53,501 nt of DNA from positions 1 to 53,501 of the forward strand of contig JAUWCU010000005.1 of assembly GCA_030609135.1 (NCBI GenBank), given 5' to 3'. Below the pieces are notes generated by a model. The model was not told the DNA's origin. It was given only the letters and a program-made list of their open reading frames with translations, and did no database searches. Source of the stretch: Candidatus Stahliibacteriota bacterium. GTDB taxonomy: Bacteria > Hydrothermota > Tepidihabitantia > SM23-42. Below, piece after piece: positions 110 to 52,553 of the stretch. Positions within the stretch are counted from its first letter, which is position 1. Every line of letters begins with the position of its first letter. A program made the translations under genes and the position numbers.

Positions 110-155
110 GTAGCTACCGAGATAAGATGCAAGAAGTAAGAGTCACGCTGGCGCT

Positions 156-203
156 GTAGTTGTCTGATGAATCTCCGCAATGCGTGAGCAGGCAGGCGAC
201 TAC
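156..203. repeat. GTAGT...ACTAC inverted-end repeat (BIME-like), degenerate copy
   Basis: GTAGT at 156-160 pairs with ACTAC at 199-203. The left end reads GTAGTTGTCTGAT and the right end, read inward, GTAGTCGCCTG; both match the ends of the elements at 3716, 18045, 34639 and 52096. The inner hairpins of this copy are eroded. Confidence 0.55.
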
Positions 204-273
204 AATTTTCTCAATTACCTAATAACTTAGTTACTTAATAACTGAACATCATATGTTCGCCTTTACAGCTGAT

Positions 274-321
274 GGAGTGCAACGGCTTGCCGTTGCATGC
301 AGTAGCAAGCTACTGCACTCC
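274..321. repeat. Branched double-hairpin repeat, copy 2
   Basis: This is an exact direct copy of the element at 62-109: outer stem GGAGTG/CACTCC, two 7-bp hairpins, CATG linker. It is followed by the same 'gtagctaccgagataag' text as copy 1, so the duplicated unit is about 68 bases. Confidence 0.85.
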
Positions 322-541: not shown

Positions 542-1366
542 TTAGTCGGTTTGGAACGTCGAAAACACTTCGCCATTGCGCAGTAAATAGTGACATCCAT
601 GTGGTTCAGTAGGAATTGAGTCAACGATTCCGTAGATAAGCAATTCCTTTAATCTAAAGGGTTTACGGCCAATTTGTTTTGTGAATTCTAATATTTCATT
701 GTTCAAAAATTCTATATCTAATTTCATCTTTATTTTTTTAATGTACATCTCGGCAATTGCTTTCTCCTCAGGATTTTTTGTATTATTATAGAGATCCAGC
801 CACAAGGCAAGTGCGGTCTTTAAATCTCCGAGCCTATAATAGGTAACAAATGCTGCCCAGCGTTTGGGTGTATCTGGAGCATCTGGTTTTTGTGAAGCAA
901 TACGAAAATATCTCTGTGCAATACGATGTTCACGCAAGAATACATAGTGAATAAAACCATACATAAATGGAAGACGCCAATCATCAGGATTTGCCAGCAT
1001 CCCTTTTTTCATTAACATCCGTGCCTGATCCGGTTTTTGTGCATCATGGGTTAACATCAAGCCACCCAAGGAATAGGCATACATAAATCTATGGTCAAGG
1101 GTTGTCAGGATGTCCAAAATATGGTACATGAGTTCAAATCGTGCATCGCTCATGCGATGCTCACCATAGTATTGAATGAATCTTAGCCAGACTAAATCTG
1201 CAAGTGGTGCATAAAATCCCATTGATAAAGCCCTGAGCGCGGTTCCGGACGGAAAATACGTCAGCTCTCCAATCAATTCATGTGGTGATTTGCCAAGGTC
1301 AATACGGTACGAGAAATTGGCGATGATGAAGAGAAGCAGGATGATAACAATGATGTTCTTTTTCAT
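542..1366 (-). CDS. Membrane-anchored TPR-like protein of the ABC exporter operon
   Basis: A 274-residue protein with one N-terminal hydrophobic segment (about residues 5-18), likely an uncleaved anchor or signal, followed by helical repeat-like sequence rich in Y/A/L (about 60-220) that resembles degenerate tetratricopeptide repeats. No catalytic motif is visible. It is the third gene of a minus-strand run with an ABC permease and ATPase; that order (ATPase, permease, TPR membrane protein) is one I recognise from other bacteria. The function is unknown, possibly an accessory subunit of the exporter. The RAYT gene and its hairpins sit between it and the permease, so co-transcription may be disturbed. 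No strong ribosome-binding site precedes the ATG. Confidence 0.7.
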   Translation of the reverse strand: MKKNIIVIILLLFIIANFSYRIDLGKSPHELIGELTYFPSGTALRALSMGFYAPLADLVWLRFIQYYGEHRMSDARFELMYHILDILTTLDHRFMYAYSLGGLMLTHDAQKPDQARMLMKKGMLANPDDWRLPFMYGFIHYVFLREHRIAQRYFRIASQKPDAPDTPKRWAAFVTYYRLGDLKTALALWLDLYNNTKNPEEKAIAEMYIKKIKMKLDIEFLNNEILEFTKQIGRKPFRLKELLIYGIVDSIPTEPHGCHYLLRNGEVFSTFQTD

Positions 1367-1393
1367 TTCAATATACTTCTAACAGTGCTGGAT

Positions 1394-1439
1394 TGTCATG
1401 CTGAACTTGTTTCAGCATCTCTAAAAAATTCTTCATGAC
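1394..1439. repeat. TGTCAT...ATGAC hairpin repeat, partial
   Basis: ATGCTGAA (1398-1405) pairs with TTCAGCAT (1411-1418), and TGTCAT at the left edge pairs with ATGAC near 1435-1439. The same words occur at 21719-21796, in the two MITE copies, and in a related form at 10299-10413. This copy has only one of the two inner hairpins. Confidence 0.55.
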
Positions 1440-1492
1440 GGGGCTAAAGCCCCTACTCCAAGAAAAAACTGGAGTAGAGCCTTTAGGCTCGT
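1440..1492. repeat. Inverted pair of REP hairpins at the 3' side of the RAYT gene
   Basis: Two REP-like units face each other. At 1440-1460 (minus) the unit reads GGAGTAG followed by stem GGGC-TTTA-GCCC. At 1471-1492 (plus) it reads GGAGTAG then GAGCC-TTTA-GGCTC. Both have GTAG at the foot and an invariant TTTA loop, while the stems differ. This matches known REP/BIME architecture, in which RAYT transposases recognise a GTAG beside a hairpin. They lie 8 bp beyond the RAYT stop codon. Confidence 0.75.
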
Positions 1493-1499
1493 GAAATAA

Positions 1500-2045
1500 T
1501 TAATAATTATCATATTTATCGACATAATCAATAATCGGATAACGCATAAATAGATCCTTAATCCATTCTGAGCCATTTGTCTTTAAATAATGAGAATAAC
1601 TCGAATATTTGTAGGATGCCAGGTTGTCAAATTTTTTAATATATTTATGTTTAATTGGATTATTATGAATATAGTTGAAACGTGTAAAAATATCATTTTT
1701 ATTTCTAATGCATGTATCCCAGTAACTATACCAGATTTTTCTTATAGTTTGCTTCTCTAATTTGTTAATCATATATGAACTACGGCCATTGATTAGATTC
1801 ATTAATTTGCTCAAAAATCTGCTATTTAGGATCTCTACCAAAATATGATAATGATTTTCAAGAATAACCCAGGCGAAGAGATTACATTGAATTTCTTTGA
1901 TAGAATTAAAAATCGCCTTGCGTAATATTTGCTTTTTAATGTTTGTACTAAAATATTTCTGTTTATTTATTGTTGAAGAAGTTATAATATAAATTGTATT
2001 ATCCCTATAAATATGAGGTGGATTATGGTAGACAATCTGGCTCAT
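1500..2045 (-). CDS. REP-associated tyrosine transposase (RAYT, Y1_Tnp family)
   Basis: A 181-residue single-domain HUH enzyme. The HUH motif is H65-Y-H67 in 'ENHYHILVE', and the likely catalytic tyrosine is Y125 in 'YIHNNPIK', a hallmark of this family. Members cut and join single-stranded DNA at REP hairpins. The gene is intact and AT-rich compared with its neighbours. REP hairpins with GTAG feet flank it on both sides (1440-1492 and 2062-2118), as is typical of RAYT loci, and it sits inside an ABC-transporter operon in the same orientation. The family assignment is firm; its activity on these particular repeats is inferred. Confidence 0.88.
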   Translation of the reverse strand: MSQIVYHNPPHIYRDNTIYIITSSTINKQKYFSTNIKKQILRKAIFNSIKEIQCNLFAWVILENHYHILVEILNSRFLSKLMNLINGRSSYMINKLEKQTIRKIWYSYWDTCIRNKNDIFTRFNYIHNNPIKHKYIKKFDNLASYKYSSYSHYLKTNGSEWIKDLFMRYPIIDYVDKYDNY

Positions 2046-2061
2046 AATTTAACTAACTGGA

Positions 2062-2118
2062 CGGGCGTAAACGCCCTACTCCAGAGAGCGCGAGGCACGG
2101 GCGTAAACGCCCTACTCC
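2062..2118 (-). repeat. Tandem pair of REP hairpins upstream of the RAYT gene
   Basis: Two identical minus-strand copies (2062-2082 and 2098-2118) read GGAGTAG then stem GGGCG-TTTA-CGCCC, separated by 15 bases. They have the same GTAG foot and TTTA loop as the pair at 1440-1492 but a different stem. They occupy the gap between the ABC permease stop and the RAYT start, so they would lie in the transcript leader of the RAYT gene. Confidence 0.8.
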
Positions 2119-2126
2119 ATTTATTA

Positions 2127-2894
2127 TCATTTGAATTCCCTTTTCTCAAATATAATAATTGCCAGATAAACAAGAAAAATCGTATAAATCAACCCATAAC
2201 AGATTGAAAACAAGAGCTGGTCTGGATATAAAGGTAGTTTATGGACTAAATCGATTCTCAGATTGAAGTTCTCAAGATTCGGCATTATGTAGTAGAATCC
2301 ATAAGCAAGATACTTCATTGCGGGTATTTTGACCTGGTCAGCAAATAGCTTAAGGTCAGGACTGGCATGGCCAATAATAAAGAAGATAATACCCATCATT
2401 GCGCTCAATGCGGGTGAAGAAAAGGATGAAAATAACAGAAGGATCCCGAGTAAGATCATTATTTCTAAAATCAAGAATGGTATTGCAATCAGCAGAGAAA
2501 AATCAAAGGAACCTTCATAAAAAAAGATCACGAGTTGTTGAATAACTGCCATGGAGCATACCAGTATTATGATAAGTAGTAATAATCCCAAGAACTTACC
2601 GATGATGATTTCACTCCTTCTGACAGGTTTTGTTATTACCGTATAAATTGTGCGTTTCTCAATATCTTTGTGTATGAGTGTTGAACCTATTATTATAACG
2701 ACCAAGACCCCAAAGAGCGCTGATACTGCCAGGCTAAAATCCCTGAGTATTCGTGGTGCTTCACCCAGAGCAAACGGTTCAAGAAAGATTGAGACAACAA
2801 TCAATAGGATACTAAATATTACAAGTAGTAGGAGAATTTTCTGACGTAGGCTTTCTTTAAATGTGTTTTCAATTATAGCCCAAATTCTATTCAT
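2127..2894 (-). CDS. ABC-2 type transporter permease
   Basis: A 255-residue polytopic membrane protein with about six hydrophobic segments (near residues 18-38, 58-75, 98-120, 135-155, 160-178 and 228-248). The 'DIEKRTIYTVITKPVRRSE' region between the second and third segments is typical of NosY/ABC-2 permeases. It overlaps the ATPase gene by 8 bp, so the two are translated together and form one exporter. The substrate cannot be told from sequence. Confidence 0.85.
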   Translation of the reverse strand: MNRIWAIIENTFKESLRQKILLLLVIFSILLIVVSIFLEPFALGEAPRILRDFSLAVSALFGVLVVIIIGSTLIHKDIEKRTIYTVITKPVRRSEIIIGKFLGLLLLIIILVCSMAVIQQLVIFFYEGSFDFSLLIAIPFLILEIMILLGILLLFSSFSSPALSAMMGIIFFIIGHASPDLKLFADQVKIPAMKYLAYGFYYIMPNLENFNLRIDLVHKLPLYPDQLLFSICYGLIYTIFLVYLAIIIFEKREFK

Positions 2895-3669: not shown

Positions 3670-3715
3670 CAAATATTTCGCCATTTTAGGAACTTGGACA
3701 GATTGTTTAATAGCT

Positions 3716-3790
3716 GTAGTTGTCCAATTCACCCACGTCCCTTATGAAAGAGCGGGGTTCATTGGACTGCCCGATAAATCGGGCGACTAC
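3716..3790. repeat. GTAGT...ACTAC inverted-end repeat with two inner hairpins
   Basis: GTAGT (3716-3720) pairs with ACTAC (3786-3790). Inside, GTCCAAT pairs with ATTGGAC across a long loop, and CCCGAT-AA-ATCGGG forms the second hairpin. The left flank 'aacttggacagattg' recurs inverted beside the element at 18045-18091, so the repeated unit extends past the ACTAC edge. Confidence 0.75.
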
Positions 3791-3922
3791 TGCCTAGTGC
3801 CTAGTATTTACTCCGTTACTCTGATACTCTGTTTCTCATCTTCCTATTTTCCCAACTTCCTATCTTCGAATCTTCTTATCTTCTCACTTCTTACTTCCTA
3901 CTTCTTCTTTCTTCTAACGGGG

Positions 3923-6949: not shown

Positions 6950-7060
6950 AAGAGGGTTCAAACATGGTTCAAGAAGGCAATGAAGGCAAGAAGGATAATG
7001 AAGCCATTAATAGCCTGGTTAACCGTCTCTCAGCCCTCTCTGAGCCTTGTATCAGCTTTT

Positions 7061-7218
7061 TATTACTCCGAACAATAGTTTCAATTATGTTGTGGAACCT
7101 GTCATTCCGAACTTGTTTCGGAATCTCGATAAAGTGAGACTCTGAAATAAATTCAGAGTGACAATAATGCAACATGCTAACGAAATCCACTGAAACTATT
7201 ATATGTTCTCCTTAGTAA
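7061..7218. mobile_element. MITE-like element, copy 1 (upstream of glgA)
   Basis: A 158-bp non-coding element, nearly identical and inverted relative to 49252-49413. Its ends are inverted repeats built on GAACATATAATAGTTTCA preceded by TTACT-like words. Inside is a double-hairpin core (7100-7163) with outer TGTCA/TGACA and inner stems ATTCCGAA/TTCGGAAT and CTCTGAA/TTCAGAG. It ends 8 bp before the glgA start codon, so it forms almost the entire glgA leader. No transposase is inside; movement would have to be in trans. Confidence 0.75.
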
Positions 7219-7226
7219 TTTAAACT

Positions 7227-18265: not shown

Positions 18266-18282
18266 TTGGCATATTTCTTGCA
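18266..18282 (+). promoter_or_regulatory. Sigma-54 (-24/-12) promoter
   Basis: TTGGCA (18266-18271) and TTGCA (18278-18282) place the invariant GG (18268-18269) and GC (18280-18281) exactly 12 bases apart, as the RpoN consensus requires. The expected transcript start is near 18293, 18 bases before the ATG at 18311. A longer frame starting inside this promoter is therefore not the real start. Confidence 0.75.
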
Positions 18283-18310
18283 TATTAATATTTATGGAGA
18301 TATTATCGAG

Positions 18311-21019
18311 ATGATCAAGAAAACTCTTGCTGGTATTTTAATTTTCTATATTGGATTTGTCTATGCGCAGAGCATAAACAGATCTCCAATACCTTTTGAA
18401 CCCGAGCAAGTGATTTCCCGAATCTACCAGGACGACGACTGGAACCAGCGACAATTTAGTTTTCTTGTTGATACTGTTGTGACTTCGCTCCCTGGCATTG
18501 GCGAGCAACGTTCACCTGCAGTTGCCTTTGATGGGACAAATTATTTTATCGTATATACTGAATACCGGCATGGCACGGCGCAGATTTATGGAATAAGGGT
18601 GACACCAGATGGTGTATTACTTGATTCCTCTGGGATTGCAATATCATTTGCCAGTTATTCACAACATAATCCAGGTATTGCCTTTGACAATACAAACTAT
18701 TTTGTCGTGTGGCAAGATTATCGAGATTATGGAGCAGACATCTATGGTGCACGTATTTCTACAAGCGGTGATGTGCTGGACCCAGCTGGTATCCTGATTG
18801 CTGGATCTGGAACAAACCCTGTCCTGGCATTTGATGGCACGAATTATCTTATTGCCTGGTGCCGGGGATCAGGTATATATGGAGCACGTGTAACACAGAC
18901 CGGTCAGGTTTTGGACGACATCCTGATCTCCAACACTTTCGGGCAACAGCGTGTTACTAATATTGCTTTTAACGGTACTGATTACCTGGTAGTATGGGAA
19001 GATAGTAGGAATCCCTGGTGGATGACAAATAGGGATATCTATGGCGCCCGGGTTAGCACGTCTGGTATTGTGCTCGATACCGCAGGTATTGAGATTTGGG
19101 CAGATAGTAGTTGCGACTATCGTTTTCCCAGCGTCGCATGTGACAGCACCAATTATCTGGTTGTCTGGCAAAGTCAACAAGATAATAATGTGTTTGATAT
19201 ATACGGCACCCGGGTAAACCCAGATGGTATTGTACTCGATACCACAGGTATTGCAATATCGACTGCAGGTTGTTCTCAAATGCATACATCAATTGCATTT
19301 GATGGCCCTAACTATTTTGTCGTGTGGCATCGGCATAAGCCTAACGAGCATAACGAAGTGGACAATTTTGATATTTATGGCGCACGTATTTCAACATCAG
19401 GTAATGTAATCGATACAATGGGCATTGCAATCTCAACTGCAGACAGGTTTCAATGCTATCCGGTCATTGATTTTGATGGGCTTAACTATCTTGTCGTGTG
19501 GCAGGACAAGCGATTCGGTTCTACGCTTGAAAATAATATCGGTTGTGCAAGGGTCAATCAATCAGGTCAGGTTCTTGATCCAGGAGGAATCAATCTGTCA
19601 ACACAGATGCCGGTCCAGCAATCATGTCCAGTAGCGGCATTTGACGGTACAAACTATCTTGTAGTCTGGCATGACTTTCGTGATGAATCCTTTCCTGTAT
19701 CCAATGCTGATATCTATGGCATAAGAGTAGATAAACTTGGTCAAGTCCTTGATTCTTCAGCAATCGCAATATCAACGGCAGCACATGATCAGTTGTTTCC
19801 TGCGGTTGCGTTTGATGGCACAAACTATTTTGTGGTTTGGGAAGACCGTCGCACAGACAACTATTATCCGCATATTTATGGAGCACGGGTATCTCAGACC
19901 GGCGCGGTGATCGATCCAGAAGGTATAATTATTGCCGACAGTATGTACGGAGAGATTTCTCCTTCAATTGCTTTTGATGGAACGAATTATCTTGTAGCAT
20001 GGTTTGGTCGGTGTGGTTGGTCTTCTGGAATCATTGGTACCAGGGTTTCTCAATTTGGTGTAGTGCTTGACTCTGGTGGTTTTGTGATTGACACTGCGGG
20101 TTGGTATTTTTTCAATGATCAGACCTCAATTGCATATGGCGCAGATGCTTATCTTGTTGTCTGGAACGCTAATGATATTTTTGGTGCGCGTGTTTGTACA
20201 TCTGGTGTAGTCATTGATACAATACCCATACAGATTTCAAATGGTCAGTATCGTGAGTTTTCACCATCAGTTAATTTCAATGGAACAAACTACTTTGTCG
20301 TGTGGGATGATGAACGAAATAGTACTCATCCCTGGCCTGTAGATAGTATTGATATATACGGTGCACGAGTATCTCAAACCGGTATTGTGCTCGATACCTC
20401 GAATATTCGTATCTCAGAAGCTCCAGGATATCAAAAATCTCCGGGTATTGGATTTGACGGCACAGACTATCTGGTTGTGTGGGAAGATTCTCAGAATGAT
20501 TCTTTTTATGACATTTACGGTGCCAAGGTCAATTCATCTGGCACAGTCATAAATACATACCAGATTGTTGTGCAGTCTGGAGATCAATTTGAACCACGTC
20601 TTGCCCGGGGAAACAATGATCAGATTTTGATTGTTTATTCGGGCTGGACCGATTCAATCAATATACAGCCGGCTAATACCATGCGCATCTGGGGTAAATA
20701 CTACCCCTTTGTTGGCATTGAACAAACCAGGACACTCAATGCAATACATGGATGTGAATTATATGCTTATCCAAACCCTTTTCATACGCGGGTGACCTTA
20801 AACTACTCGTATCAAAGTGCACGTGGGAAAAGCCGCATTAATATCCGCATCTACGATGTAACCGGTCGCATGGTAAAGTCATATGATGACCTGCAGGATC
20901 ATCAAGTAATATGGTATGCTTGTGATGAGTACGGAAAACACTTGCCAGCTGGTATTTATTTCTGTATGTTGTATAGTGAAGACATGACATTGAGCAGAAA
21001 AATAGTCATGATCAAGTAA
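18311..21019 (+). CDS. Large secreted repeat protein with type IX-style C-terminal sorting domain
   Basis: A 902-residue exported protein. A signal peptide (about 1-20, ending 'FVYAQ') is followed by some thirteen repeats of about 45-60 residues with the pattern 'AFDGTNYxVVW...DIYGARVsxxGxVLDxxGIxIS', probably forming one or two beta-propellers. The last 80 residues are a FlgD/Por-type sorting domain ('YAYPNPFHTRVTLNY', 'GIYFCMLYS', terminal K). It looks like an adhesin or surface-layer protein. The ATG at 18311 is chosen because it begins the signal peptide and lies just after a sigma-54 start site. A pilin-like gene follows 15 bp downstream. Confidence 0.78.
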   Translation: MIKKTLAGILIFYIGFVYAQSINRSPIPFEPEQVISRIYQDDDWNQRQFSFLVDTVVTSLPGIGEQRSPAVAFDGTNYFIVYTEYRHGTAQIYGIRVTPDGVLLDSSGIAISFASYSQHNPGIAFDNTNYFVVWQDYRDYGADIYGARISTSGDVLDPAGILIAGSGTNPVLAFDGTNYLIAWCRGSGIYGARVTQTGQVLDDILISNTFGQQRVTNIAFNGTDYLVVWEDSRNPWWMTNRDIYGARVSTSGIVLDTAGIEIWADSSCDYRFPSVACDSTNYLVVWQSQQDNNVFDIYGTRVNPDGIVLDTTGIAISTAGCSQMHTSIAFDGPNYFVVWHRHKPNEHNEVDNFDIYGARISTSGNVIDTMGIAISTADRFQCYPVIDFDGLNYLVVWQDKRFGSTLENNIGCARVNQSGQVLDPGGINLSTQMPVQQSCPVAAFDGTNYLVVWHDFRDESFPVSNADIYGIRVDKLGQVLDSSAIAISTAAHDQLFPAVAFDGTNYFVVWEDRRTDNYYPHIYGARVSQTGAVIDPEGIIIADSMYGEISPSIAFDGTNYLVAWFGRCGWSSGIIGTRVSQFGVVLDSGGFVIDTAGWYFFNDQTSIAYGADAYLVVWNANDIFGARVCTSGVVIDTIPIQISNGQYREFSPSVNFNGTNYFVVWDDERNSTHPWPVDSIDIYGARVSQTGIVLDTSNIRISEAPGYQKSPGIGFDGTDYLVVWEDSQNDSFYDIYGAKVNSSGTVINTYQIVVQSGDQFEPRLARGNNDQILIVYSGWTDSINIQPANTMRIWGKYYPFVGIEQTRTLNAIHGCELYAYPNPFHTRVTLNYSYQSARGKSRINIRIYDVTGRMVKSYDDLQDHQVIWYACDEYGKHLPAGIYFCMLYSEDMTLSRKIVMIK

Positions 21020-25492: not shown

Positions 25493-25526
25493 TATTTATG
25501 CGTCTATACAGGCTGATAGAGAATTA

Positions 25527-25547
25527 GGAGTAGGGCGTTTACGCCTG
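25527..25547 (+). repeat. REP hairpin (GTAG foot, TTTA loop)
   Basis: GGAGTAG then GGCG-TTTA-CGCC, the same unit as the tandem pair at 2062-2118. The flank 'tatacaggctga..gagaat' just before it is also found before the REP at 25716-25736. Confidence 0.7.
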
Positions 25548-25554
25548 TATTTTG

Positions 25555-25606
25555 GGAGTGCAATGTCTCCTGACATTGCATGCAACGAGGGGTCTCGTTG
25601 CACTCC
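25555..25606. repeat. Branched double-hairpin repeat, copy 3, with compensatory stem changes
   Basis: The outer stem GGAGTG (25555-25560) / CACTCC (25601-25606) and the linker CATG (25579-25582) are identical to the copies at 62 and 274. Hairpin 1 is now CAATGTC-TCCT-GACATTG and hairpin 2 is CAACGAG-GGGT-CTCGTTG. Both are perfect, with unrelated inner stem bases and larger loops. Confidence 0.85.
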
Positions 25607-25715
25607 ACATTTAACGAGCCCCGTGAAATAATCGCCTTCTGAATGTATTTAAAGTTCCCAATTAGACTACAGCTGTCATTTATGTCTTTAACCTTCATAA
25701 TTCTATTTAACGGGG

Positions 25716-25736
25716 CGAGCCTAAAGGCTCTACTCC
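25716..25736 (-). repeat. REP hairpin overlapping the 3' end of the thioesterase gene
   Basis: On the minus strand GGAGTAG is followed by GAGCC-TTTA-GGCTC, the same stem as the unit at 1471-1492. The GGAGTAG foot begins at the last base of the thioesterase stop codon. Confidence 0.7.
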
Positions 25737-26170
25737 TACAAATTTCGACATTCTCGGTCAGCCTGTATACTACTGATTCTGATTAACTTAGCCTGAGCCC
25801 GGGCGATCAACTTACTGCTTTTATCCACGATTTCTGCATCGGCAATAATAAGCTGGTGCTTTACGCGCACTACTCTGGCACGTGCTGTGTATGTTTCATT
25901 GACCTGCATTGGGGTTCGTATGCGCACGTTCAATTCGCCGGTCACGCATTTTAAGTTGTCCTTTAGATAGGCAGCCCAGACTGTCATTTCATCAAGGATT
26001 GTACAGATGATACCGCCGTGGACAGTATTGTGATAACCTTGAGTCCACAAAGGAAGCTCAATATGCGCCTTCACACCGCCATTGCATTCTTTAATGCTCA
26101 GCTTAAGACCGTTCGGGTTATCAAAACCGCAGGCAAAACATTTTTTGTCCATAAAGAACTCAGTATTCAT
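25736..26170 (-). CDS. Hotdog-fold thioesterase (PaaI/4HBT family)
   Basis: A 144-residue hotdog protein. 'CFACGFDNPNGLKL' at the N-terminus and 'YHNTVHGGIICTILDEMTVWAA' (the hotdog helix, with the catalytic-type D/E) are typical of acyl-CoA thioesterases of the PaaI/YbgC group. The ATG at 26170 has AAGGA upstream and overlaps lolA by 11 bp. The last about 12 residues ('SSIQADRECRNL') are encoded by REP-flank sequence, so the natural C-terminus appears replaced by repeat-derived DNA. The substrate is unknown. Confidence 0.82.
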   Translation of the reverse strand: MNTEFFMDKKCFACGFDNPNGLKLSIKECNGGVKAHIELPLWTQGYHNTVHGGIICTILDEMTVWAAYLKDNLKCVTGELNVRIRTPMQVNETYTARARVVRVKHQLIIADAEIVDKSSKLIARAQAKLIRISSIQADRECRNL

Positions 26171-26780
26171 CAAGCTGAGTTCCTTCAGGTGGTTTGAATT
26201 CAAAAAGGCTTTTTGACATTTTTTTGTCTATTTCAATCTTATCGAAACTGAATTTACTCTCCTGACCAGCCTGGTCCTGGATAGAAATCGCCTGAATCTC
26301 ATATTTGCTTTTGTGAATGGCTATTATTATTTTTGTATATATATCGGTTTCCTCTTTGGGAAGTAAGGCAATCTGAACTGTGTTTTCCTTTTCTGATATG
26401 AGTTCAATATTGAATCGCTTGTCATAGTCTTTCAAGAAAATATCAGGGTTTATCTGGACCGGTATCTGACCAAGGCTCTGTCTGATTGCGCGGTTTTTCT
26501 CAGGCATGTATATCCAGAGGGAAGAACTGTCGCCAACATAAATTTGTGCCGGGTCCCCGATTTCCATTCTGAAGAAATTGGGTCTTTTAAAATATATCTT
26601 ACCATCAAACAACTGGCATGTCCCTGATAATTCATCACACAAAACTTGTGTGAATTCCGCATAGAAGCTATTGAGATCATTGTATTTCTCAGTAGTTTTA
26701 TCTATTATTTCATCCAGGTCTACGGCAAACAAGTGTTGGGTAATGAAAAATAACAGAAAAAACAGCAGTTTAACTTTCAT
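26160..26780 (-). CDS. lolA: Outer-membrane lipoprotein carrier protein LolA
   Basis: A 206-residue periplasmic carrier of lipoproteins. A signal peptide (about 1-19, 'LLFFLLFFITQHLFA') precedes the LolA/LppX fold ('FYAEFTQVLCDEL', 'GKIYFKRPNFFRMEI', 'IYVGDSSSLWIYMPEKNRA'). I start it at the ATG at 26780, preceded by AAAGGAGA; the longer frame upstream has no signal. Overlap with the thioesterase start suggests co-translation. Confidence 0.88.
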   Translation of the reverse strand: MKVKLLFFLLFFITQHLFAVDLDEIIDKTTEKYNDLNSFYAEFTQVLCDELSGTCQLFDGKIYFKRPNFFRMEIGDPAQIYVGDSSSLWIYMPEKNRAIRQSLGQIPVQINPDIFLKDYDKRFNIELISEKENTVQIALLPKEETDIYTKIIIAIHKSKYEIQAISIQDQAGQESKFSFDKIEIDKKMSKSLFEFKPPEGTQLDEY

Positions 26781-48046: not shown

Positions 48047-49271
48047 GGGGACAAGAGACATTTACGGCAAAGAGCTGAAAAGAATTGAAGCAGTATGTAA
48101 TGCAGCCCGCAGTTTCTTTGTAAGAAATGGTTATCAAGAAATAAGAACTCCGGCGTTTGAAATGGCCGATCTCTTCATACGTTCAATCGGCGAACACACT
48201 GATATTGTCGAAAAGGAAAACTATACCTTCAAAGCCGGCAAAAGAATATACATGCTTAGACCTGAAGGAACCGCGTCAGTCCTGCGGGCAATTATCGAAA
48301 ACAAAATCCCTTTGCCGCGTCGTTTCCTGTATATTGAGCCAATGTATCGAAAAGAACGACCCCAGAAAGGGAGGTATCGCGAGTTCATCCAGATCGGTAT
48401 TGAATTAATCGGTGAAGATGATCCTATATACGATGCGGAAATGATTGAACAGGGAAAGAGATTTCTGGAGTCAGTCGGCGCCAGTGGCTTTACTATAGAA
48501 GTTAACTCAATAGGATGCCCGAAGTGTCGTTCTCTCTACAAAAAGGCTCTCAAAGATTTCTTGAGAGCCAAAACAAACATGCTTTGTTCGAATTGCACGG
48601 TTCGGTTAAATAAGAATTTTCTGCGCATCTTTGACTGCAAAGAACAAAAATGCCAAGAAATCTACGATACCGCACCGAAGATCACCGATAACCTTTGTGC
48701 AGACTGTACCCAACACTACGCAACAGTCAAAAAGTTTCTTGTTAAATTTAATATTGAATTTACGGAAAACAAAAAACTCGTGCGCGGACTTGATTACTAC
48801 ACCCGGACCGTATTTGAGTTCAAACACGAACTTCTTGGCGCACGGGATACGATACTGGCTGGTGGTCGGTACGATCTCCTCATGGAAGAGCTCGGTGGTG
48901 TAAATACACCGGCTTTAGGATGGGCAATGGGTGTTGATTGCGTAATTCTTAGTTTACCTGATGAACAACCGCCTCTTGTGCAGAGAAAAAGATTTTTCAT
49001 CGCGACAATGGGGGAGGGGTTAATAACTGAGACCCTAAAATTGCGAAATACGATACAGGAAAATGATCACGTTTGTATTATGGGAAACCCAAAGGACTCA
49101 GTCAAACACCAGCTCAAAAAAGCCAATCGTCTTCAAGTAGACTATACTGTTTTGTATGGGGAAGATGAAGCAGAGGCAAAAGTATGCAGCATGAAAGATA
49201 TGGAAAGCGGTGAGCAGAAACAAATAGCTCTAAGAGACTTTGCGTCGTTTGTTACTAAGGAGAACATATAA
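48027..49271 (+). CDS. hisS: Histidine-tRNA ligase
   Basis: A 414-residue class II synthetase. Motif 2 region 'YRKERPQKGRYREFIQIGIE', 'MLRPEGT', and the histidine-A motifs 'GLDYYTRTVFEF' and 'LAGGRYDLL' are present. The ATG at 48027 has AGGAG 11 bases upstream. The last codons (TKENI plus stop) come from the end of a MITE-like element (49252-49413), so the C-terminus has been trimmed or replaced by insertion. Confidence 0.94.
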   Translation: MRYQKPKGTRDIYGKELKRIEAVCNAARSFFVRNGYQEIRTPAFEMADLFIRSIGEHTDIVEKENYTFKAGKRIYMLRPEGTASVLRAIIENKIPLPRRFLYIEPMYRKERPQKGRYREFIQIGIELIGEDDPIYDAEMIEQGKRFLESVGASGFTIEVNSIGCPKCRSLYKKALKDFLRAKTNMLCSNCTVRLNKNFLRIFDCKEQKCQEIYDTAPKITDNLCADCTQHYATVKKFLVKFNIEFTENKKLVRGLDYYTRTVFEFKHELLGARDTILAGGRYDLLMEELGGVNTPALGWAMGVDCVILSLPDEQPPLVQRKRFFIATMGEGLITETLKLRNTIQENDHVCIMGNPKDSVKHQLKKANRLQVDYTVLYGEDEAEAKVCSMKDMESGEQKQIALRDFASFVTKENI

Positions 49272-49413
49272 TAGTTTCAGTGGATTTCGTTAGCATGTTA
49301 CGCTATTGTCACTCTGAATTTATTTCAGAGTCTCACTTTATCGAGATTCCGAAACAAGTTCGGAATGACAGTTTCCACAACATAATTGAAACTATTATAT
49401 GTTCGGAGTAATA
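49252..49413. mobile_element. MITE-like element, copy 2 (overlaps the hisS 3' end)
   Basis: A 162-bp element, inverted relative to 7061-7218 and nearly identical to it. Its ends are inverted repeats on GAACATATAATAGTTTCA. The double-hairpin core is at 49307-49370. Compared with copy 1, 'atat' is present in its right terminal repeat. It starts within hisS and supplies the stop codon. Confidence 0.75.
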
Positions 49414-52228: not shown

Positions 52229-52443
52229 AACGTTTGACAAAATAGGGAAAACGCATATCAAGAGGAAGAAGTTAAATACCCGAAACTACAGGAATTTAGT
52301 TTTTTCGCGCCGCATGGGAATAAAGGCGATAATACTCAGTATTCTCCCTATTTTACAAGACTTTTTCACAATAGATTAAACAAAATTATAAGTATATGAT
52401 GGCAAAAAAAATGGTTTAATGCATTTCTATACAATCTCCACCC

Positions 52444-52471
52444 TTGATTTTCTTGGCAGGTTGAGTATAAT
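52444..52471 (+). promoter_or_regulatory. Sigma-70-type promoter of the putative small RNA
   Basis: TTGATT (52444-52449) and TATAAT (52466-52471) are 16 bases apart. The predicted start is near 52478. Confidence 0.65.
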
Positions 52472-52477
52472 TTATAC

Positions 52478-52553
52478 AGAAGAGGCATTATTGCTTTTGC
52501 TTCTTTCTTGAACCGCAAACCTGTCCATTATTGGATGGGTTTGCGGTTTTAAT
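52478..52553 (+). ncRNA. Putative small structured RNA of about 75 nt
   Basis: A short unit between the promoter at 52444 and an intrinsic terminator, with no reading frame. It folds as two stem-loops: the first, AGAAG-AGGCA-TTAT-TGCTT...CTTCT (about 52478-52505), has a 3-base bulge; the second is the terminator stem. Both have the same apical sequence, CA-TTAT-TG. No known RNA family was recognised. The function is unknown; a trans-acting small RNA or a riboregulatory leader are options. Confidence 0.55.
52511..52553 (+). terminator. Intrinsic terminator of the putative small RNA
   Basis: AACCGCAAACC (52511-52521) pairs with GGTTTGCGGTT (52538-52548). The stem continues through two G-U pairs and TCCA/TGGA to a TTAT loop, making 17 continuous pairs, followed by TT-AAT. 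The stem is strong and the T-run short. Confidence 0.75.

What the first reader, a model, noticed from the sequence alone, without database searches (positions are those of the whole stretch)
25555..25606. Three-way-junction repeat whose stems change but stay paired
Seen directly: copies at 62-109, 274-321 and 25555-25606 share the outer stem GGAGTG/CACTCC and the linker CATG. In the third copy both inner hairpins have different sequence (CGGC to TGTC; AGTAGC to AACGAG), yet every pair is kept. Such compensatory change argues that the folded form, as RNA or single-stranded DNA, is what matters. I know of no repeat family with this exact scaffold.
Basis: seen in the sequence. Interest (0 to 1): 0.8.

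Follow-up and report, generated by a model that had tools for sequence, protein, structure and literature searches.

The report
GGAG-footed paired transposon hairpin repeat (REPIN)
The folded repeat is a tiny non-autonomous mobile element (a pair of head-to-head REP hairpins, called a REPIN) of a kind already known in other bacteria, here in a variant with a different recognition motif and two consistently unlike arms, sitting inside a second such element whose own transposase gene lies in the same window.

Summary
Three copies lie where stated, with about 30-36 places in the genome, a candidate Stahlbacteria/WOR-3 bacterium. The inner stems covary strongly. The scaffold is not a new repeat class: each half is a REP (5' foot plus hairpin), and the pair is a head-to-head REP doublet, a REPIN. 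The window encodes a REP-associated tyrosine transposase, RAYT (1500-2045, minus; NF047646 above cut-off; top fold match 4er8, a RAYT bound to a REP hairpin). Its flanking REPs are the outer arms of the element that encloses 25555-25606. Other RAYTs of this type, here and in relatives, are flanked by GGAGTG REPs. New within the kind: a GGAG foot instead of GT[AG]G (36% of RAYT flanks against 2% of controls); strict heterodimers (36 of 36 outer doublets), whose arms are the RAYT's own upstream and downstream REPs; unlike arms that favour the three-way 'clover' in the compact doublets; and REPIN-in-REPIN nesting. The outer stem never varies; it is best read as conserved foot. Mobility is inferred, not shown.

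The parts
25555..25606 (.). Inner REPIN, family B: GGAGT foot 25555-25559, hairpin GCAATGTC-TCCT-GACATTGC 25560-25579, AT 25580-25581, hairpin GCAACGAG-GGGT-CTCGTTGC 25582-25601, ACTCC foot 25602-25606
   Evidence: covariance model 61.5 bits
62..109 (.). REPIN, family A (stems AACGGC and AGTAGC)
   Evidence: 55.7 bits on minus
274..321 (.). REPIN, family A, identical to 62-109, shared downstream flank
25527..25546 (+). Outer REPIN, arm 1 (GGAGTAGGGCGTTTACGCCT, one mismatch to consensus ...CCC)
25717..25736 (-). Outer REPIN, arm 2 (GGAGTAGAGCCTTTAGGCTC)
25509..25765 (.). Whole composite element bounded by the inverted repeat CAGGCTGATAGAGAAT / ATTCTCGGTCAGCCTG; absent in G003, different interior in G001 and G002
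25619..25715 (.). Third nested unit with CCCCGTGAAATAA / TATTTAACGGGG inverted ends; absent from the 108-bp composite copies
1500..2045 (-). RAYT gene (REP-associated tyrosine transposase, 181 aa, HYH motif H65-Y66-H67, Y125 aligned with catalytic Y115 of E. coli TnpAREP)
1471..1490 (+). REP flanking the RAYT on its downstream side (GGAGTAGAGCCTTTAGGCTC), same as outer arm 2
2063..2082 (-). REP flanking the RAYT upstream (GGAGTAGGGCGTTTACGCCC), same as outer arm 1
2099..2118 (-). Second upstream REP, same sequence
1440..1459 (-). Further REP-like arm GGAGTAGGGGCTTTAGCCCC next to the RAYT module
   Evidence: read in the sequence

Best explanation
The repeat is a REPIN: two REP sequences (5'-GGAG foot plus 8-bp hairpin) placed head to head, a miniature non-autonomous element of the single-strand HUH transposase called RAYT/TnpAREP. 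Copy 3 is nested in the spacer of a second, larger REPIN whose two arms are the REPs that flank the RAYT gene at 1500-2045 of the same window. Proposed working: when the region is single-stranded (replication), each strand folds and the RAYT binds the arm that reads 5'-GGAG-hairpin on that strand. The GGAG foot acts as guide; its AG pairs with the C|T of the far foot CTCC and positions the cut; Tyr125 attaches to the 5' end, and the doublet is excised or copied elsewhere. The two arms are unlike because they are the left and right ends of the RAYT unit, and in the compact doublets the unlikeness favours the clover (three-way) fold over one long hairpin. SHOWN: the doublets, covariation, RAYT identity, arm matching, heterodimer rule, presence/absence between relatives. 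INFERRED from E. coli, S. maltophilia and Marinomonas TnpAREP (PMC8266576): binding, C|T cleavage, mobility. In this genome no RAYT flanked by family A or B arms was found, so those copies may be orphans or passengers.
For: RAYT in window above the NCBIfam equivalog cut-off (94 against 80 bits); top fold match 4er8, TnpAREP with REP hairpin, E 4e-10, rmsd 2.0; H65, H67 and Y125 invariant. Window RAYT flanked by the REPs that form the enclosing element. C13 RAYT flanked by family C doublets and G028/G034 RAYTs by GGAGTG REPs. RAYT modules present or absent between relatives: window 1361-2128 against G002, G002 C1 against G000. Element absent in G003 at the rimO locus. Covariation, heterodimer rule 36/36, fold energies, GGAG foot enrichment. 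Genomes with three or more model matches tend to hold such RAYTs, Fisher p 7.6e-4.
Against: No cleavage, binding or movement was observed. The foot is GGAG, not the published GTAG/GTGG. No RAYT with family A arms was found; the RAYT with an AACGAG arm (family B) is in G002 and missing at that site in G000. No clean empty site was found for the 48-54 bp doublet alone; the empty site is for the enclosing element. Several genomes (G003, G032, G036, G038, G056) have copies but no close RAYT, and G037 has a RAYT but no copies. The 73-bp outer REPIN slightly prefers the long hairpin.
Confidence: 0.9

Rival explanations
1. A structured RNA element (riboswitch-like, terminator or mRNA-stabilising hairpin) whose three-way fold acts in transcripts.
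For: RNA folding is also strong (z -3.8 to -5.8); most copies lie outside long ORFs (20 of 26).
Against: Both strands fold equally; no Rfam match; no T-run after the doublet, the one terminator-like hit in the region is the outer arm and not above chance; copies have varied flanks; single arms flank transposase genes.
Confidence: 0.08
2. A domesticated REP/BIME with a host role (nucleoid protein or gyrase binding, mRNA decay control), RAYT being incidental. This is not exclusive of the best explanation.
For: Such roles are reported for E. coli REPs (established knowledge); element ends form the last nine codons of the thioesterase ORF.
Against: Families differ between close relatives (A found only in G000), modules come and go; no conserved gene neighbourhood was seen.
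Confidence: 0.15
3. A MITE of a different transposase: the CAGGCTGACCGAGAAT inverted repeat marks a terminal-inverted-repeat transposon and the REP arms are cargo.
For: A long inverted repeat bounds the composite; RAYT-like TIRtrons are described (PMC3733652).
Against: The window RAYT is flanked by the REP arms and not by that inverted repeat; no target duplication was noticed at the G003 comparison.
Confidence: 0.12
4. Coincidence of unrelated palindromes.
For: None after testing.
Against: Chance 0.04 in window; 30 against 2 for the reversed-pattern control in the genome; model E-values to 1e-14 in own genome.
Confidence: 0.01

Closest known systems
REPIN (REP doublet forming hairpin), Bertels and Rainey 2011, PMC3116915
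   Same: Inverted REP doublet, extragenic, folds in ssDNA, clover alternative proposed, RAYT-associated, compensatory changes
   Different: Compact spacer (0-8 nt in the compact families); foot GGAG; consistently unlike arms; clover favoured over long hairpin in compact doublets; nested in another REPIN
BIME / GTAG-tagged head-to-head REP dimers, Di Nocera 2013, PMC3733652
   Same: Head-to-head dimers, 1-5 bp spacing in some, heterodimers, dimers inside longer palindromes
   Different: Tag is GGAG, not GTAG or CGTC; heterodimers without exception in the sets tested; arms match the RAYT's own two REPs
RAYT/TnpAREP, REPtron (Nunvar 2010 PMC2817692; Quentin 2018 PMC6006769 subclass 2.8 with HYH)
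   Same: HUH (HYH) plus Tyr, flanked by two inverted REPs, some with REP read into the N-terminal frame
   Different: Published feet are GT[AG]G; here GGAG; lineage WOR-3 with relatives in Chloroflexi, Patescibacteria, Endomicrobia and others. Assignment to subclass 2.8 was not tested with a tree
IS200/IS605 (IS608) left and right end hairpins with guide tetranucleotides
   Same: Single-strand HUH chemistry; two different end hairpins; guide motif 5' of the hairpin
   Different: Elements here are inverted doublets without a gene; not shown to transpose

Membership tests
REPIN | Two REPs in inverted orientation as a repeated unit | tested here: met
REPIN | Predicted hairpin fold of the doublet in ssDNA | tested here: met
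REPIN | Cognate RAYT in the genome, flanked by the same REPs | tested here: met
   Outer family: window RAYT; family C: C13 RAYT. Not found for A and B in G000
REPIN | Mobilised as a doublet (excision/insertion events) | tested here: inconclusive
   Composite present/absent between relatives; no event seen for the bare doublet
GTAG-tagged REP | GTAG or GTGG tetranucleotide at the hairpin foot | tested here: not met
   Foot is GGAG(TG) in the inner families; outer family reads GGAGTAG; GGAG is the enriched foot across the clade. So not filed as a GTAG family
RAYT/TnpAREP | HUH motif and catalytic Tyr | tested here: met
RAYT/TnpAREP | Match to curated model and fold | tested here: met
   NF047646 94 bits over 80; 4er8 best fold match
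RAYT/TnpAREP | Cleaves ssREP at C|T | not testable with these tools
   needs the protein
Structured RNA family | Match to a known Rfam family | tested here: not met

The most novel reading that the evidence does not exclude
The GGAG/CTCC 'outer stem' is not mere foot conservation but the guide-to-cleavage-site pairing itself, and the two arms are kept unlike by selection so that the doublet takes the three-way clover, the transposase's true substrate. That would explain why REP dimers are so often heterodimers, noted as having no obvious explanation in PMC3733652.
Probability: 0.25. Interest if true: 0.6.

Novelty: new variant of a known kind. Interest (0 to 1): 0.42.

Why it matters
REP/REPIN biochemistry rests on GTAG-footed elements of Proteobacteria. 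A branch of RAYTs in candidate phyla uses a GGAG foot and obeys a strict two-arm rule in the sets tested. It offers natural variants to test how the foot picks the cut site, whether the clover or the long hairpin is the substrate, and why heterodimers prevail.

Tried and rejected
Rfam search: nothing. Terminator reading: no support. Search for a clean empty site of the bare 48-54 bp doublet in the close pair G028/G034: only RAYT-adjacent REP gain or loss was found, and the other fetched regions were not syntenic. Comparison of family A sites in C82 and C161 with G002: intergenic DNA is a mosaic of repeats without a clean junction. Family A RAYT: of the ten Y1 transposase genes of the genome none that was inspected had A arms as flanking REPs. 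The A copies in the window lie about 1.2 kb from the window RAYT, but that RAYT is flanked by the outer-type arms. The five ~335-aa Y1 transposases (L016-L020) had no foot-plus-hairpin pair at their ends. Family B: the G002 RAYT has AACGAG-type REPs on both sides rather than AACGAG plus AATGTC, so its match to B is partial. In G000/G002/G003 the number of distinct GGAGTG doublets is too small for the arm-pairing shuffle.

Full report
WHAT WAS CHECKED. The pattern GGAGTG-N30-50-CACTCC occurs three times in the window, at the stated places, against 0.04 expected. It occurs 30 times in the whole genome against 2 for the reversed control; a few of these are contig-end duplicates. Each copy folds as a three-way junction on either strand. 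A covariance model (R1) recovers only those three places in the window above noise, and 72 strand matches, about 36 places, in the genome. In all, 18 of the 61 genomes searched have matches.

ORGANISM. Contig names and lengths identify the congeneric genomes G001 and G002 as Candidatus Stahlbacteria MAGs CSMAG_2384 and CSMAG_1267, so the window belongs to the Stahlbacteria/WOR-3 lineage.

WHAT IT IS. Each half is a REP: a short foot followed by a hairpin. A RAYT gene lies at 1500-2045 on the minus strand: Pfam Y1_Tnp, NCBIfam REP_Tyr_transpos 94 bits over a cut-off of 80, sequence match to 4er8, predicted structure of mean pLDDT 87 with 4er8 as best fold match, rmsd 2.0 over 150 columns. H65, Y66, H67 and Y125 are invariant among 12 relatives, and Y125 aligns with Y115 of E. 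coli TnpAREP, the residue whose F mutant is inactive (PMC8266576). This RAYT is flanked by GGAGTAGGGCGTTTACGCCC upstream and GGAGTAGAGCCTTTAGGCTC (inverted) downstream. These are the two arms that enclose the reported repeat: 25527-25546 (one mismatch) and 25717-25736. The second short RAYT of the genome (C13) is flanked by family C doublets, and the RAYTs of G028 and G034 by GGAGTG REPs and doublets. The reported repeat is therefore a REPIN nested in the REPIN of a RAYT carried by the same window.

NESTING. The simplest outer REPIN is 73 bp. In the 108-bp composite the inner family B doublet takes up the spacer, flanked on the right by the same ACATTTAAC. The family B copies whose flanks were printed for this genome lie inside outer elements, one with its left arm replaced. 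The window copy holds a further ~97-bp unit with its own inverted ends (25619-25715). At the rimO/thioesterase site, G003 has no element (268 bp against 7 bp), while G001 and G002 have the outer arms with another interior.

COVARIATION. On 26 distinct doublets (A2), 13 of the 16 inner pairs show changes on both sides, with 48 such cells against 12.4 in shuffles and slid controls far below. Of 68 distinct arms, 53 are perfectly paired. Caution: I selected doublets with visible hairpins and left out evident chance matches of the pattern, and the sequences are related. The outer helix shows no change at all. That is built into the pattern, but strong model hits found without the pattern also nearly all keep GGAG and CTCC. 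The outer stem is best read as two conserved feet.

FOOT. Among 80 named loci with RAYTs of this type, a GGAG motif lies just before a hairpin in 36% of flanks, against 2.2% of control windows; GTAG occurs in 13% and there mostly as GGAGTAG. Loci scored negative often have GGAA, GGAT or GGAC in that place. Papers on REPs consulted here report GT[AG]G, CGTC or CnGA feet; the string GGAG at a word start does not occur in their main text, and a library search found no paper joining GGAG with RAYT or REPIN. Sub-files of those papers were not read, and such a text search cannot see GGAG inside longer printed sequences.

UNLIKE ARMS. Of 36 head-to-head outer doublets within 260 bp in four genomes, all pair one GGGCG arm with one GAGCC arm; some are orthologous, so the nominal 1.5e-11 is too small. 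In G028-type genomes no homodimer occurs among 19 distinct stem pairs, and the arms differ more than in any of 5000 re-pairings. For the outer family, family C and the G028 type, the two arms are those found upstream and downstream of the RAYT. In the compact doublets, unlike arms favour the clover by about 3-11 kcal/mol on genome means, where like arms would favour the long hairpin by about 10-15. A few single doublets and the 73-bp outer REPIN (-9.4 clover, -12.8 hairpin) are exceptions.

HOW IT PROBABLY WORKS. By analogy with TnpAREP studied in vitro (PMC8266576), which binds single-stranded REP but not its complement, cuts at C|T and uses the foot to choose the cut in at least one system, the RAYT would bind the arm reading 5'-GGAG-hairpin and cut at the C|T of a CTCC foot. 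Here GGAG and CTCC are complementary across the doublet, which makes the guide reading attractive, but this step is inference. Family B REPINs of this genome may now be passengers of the outer element: a RAYT with AACGAG-type REPs sits in G002 on C1 and is absent at the orthologous G000 site, where 46 bp remain. Family A copies are near-identical, found only in G000 among the four congeners, and have no RAYT identified here.

VERDICT. Observation confirmed; claim of an unknown scaffold not supported. New variant of a known kind: a GGAG-footed, heterodimeric, nested REPIN system of a candidate phylum.

Noticed in passing
25736-26203 (-): The thioesterase ORF reads into the composite element; its last nine codons (QADRECRNL) and stop lie in the element's end. 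The element is absent in G003, so the C-terminus must differ there.
   Followed up: partly
25619-25715; also L147, L150, L141: Separate ~97-110 bp unit with CCCCGTTAAATAA / TTATTTAACGGGG ends, nested in several outer REPINs: a possible further miniature element.
   Followed up: partly
window 155-210, 3700-3860, 52330-52500; L117 (C164 RAYT): Other REP families with a true GTAG foot (e.g. GTAGTTGTTTGATTTATCAAACA flanking the C164 RAYT) coexist in the same genome, so several RAYT/REP systems share it.
   Followed up: partly
window 6950-7225 and 49253-49407: Related inverted intergenic segments (AACATATAATAGTTTCA...) absent from G002 at both sites: another mobile repeat family.
   Followed up: no
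L190, L191 (Endomicrobia): RAYTs 51% identical to the window's are flanked by the very same REP, GTAGAGCCTTTAGGCTC, in another phylum: horizontal transfer or convergence.
   Followed up: no
L106/L107 (G034/G028 RAYT module): The RAYT module is 99.2% identical between the two genomes while flanking blocks are 91.7-95.6%.
   Followed up: no
window 542-1366 (-): 274-aa ORF next to the RAYT with no Pfam or NCBIfam match; present in G002 without the RAYT module.
   Followed up: no
window 18266-21019 (+): Protein with a T9SS type A sorting domain (TIGR04183).
   Followed up: no
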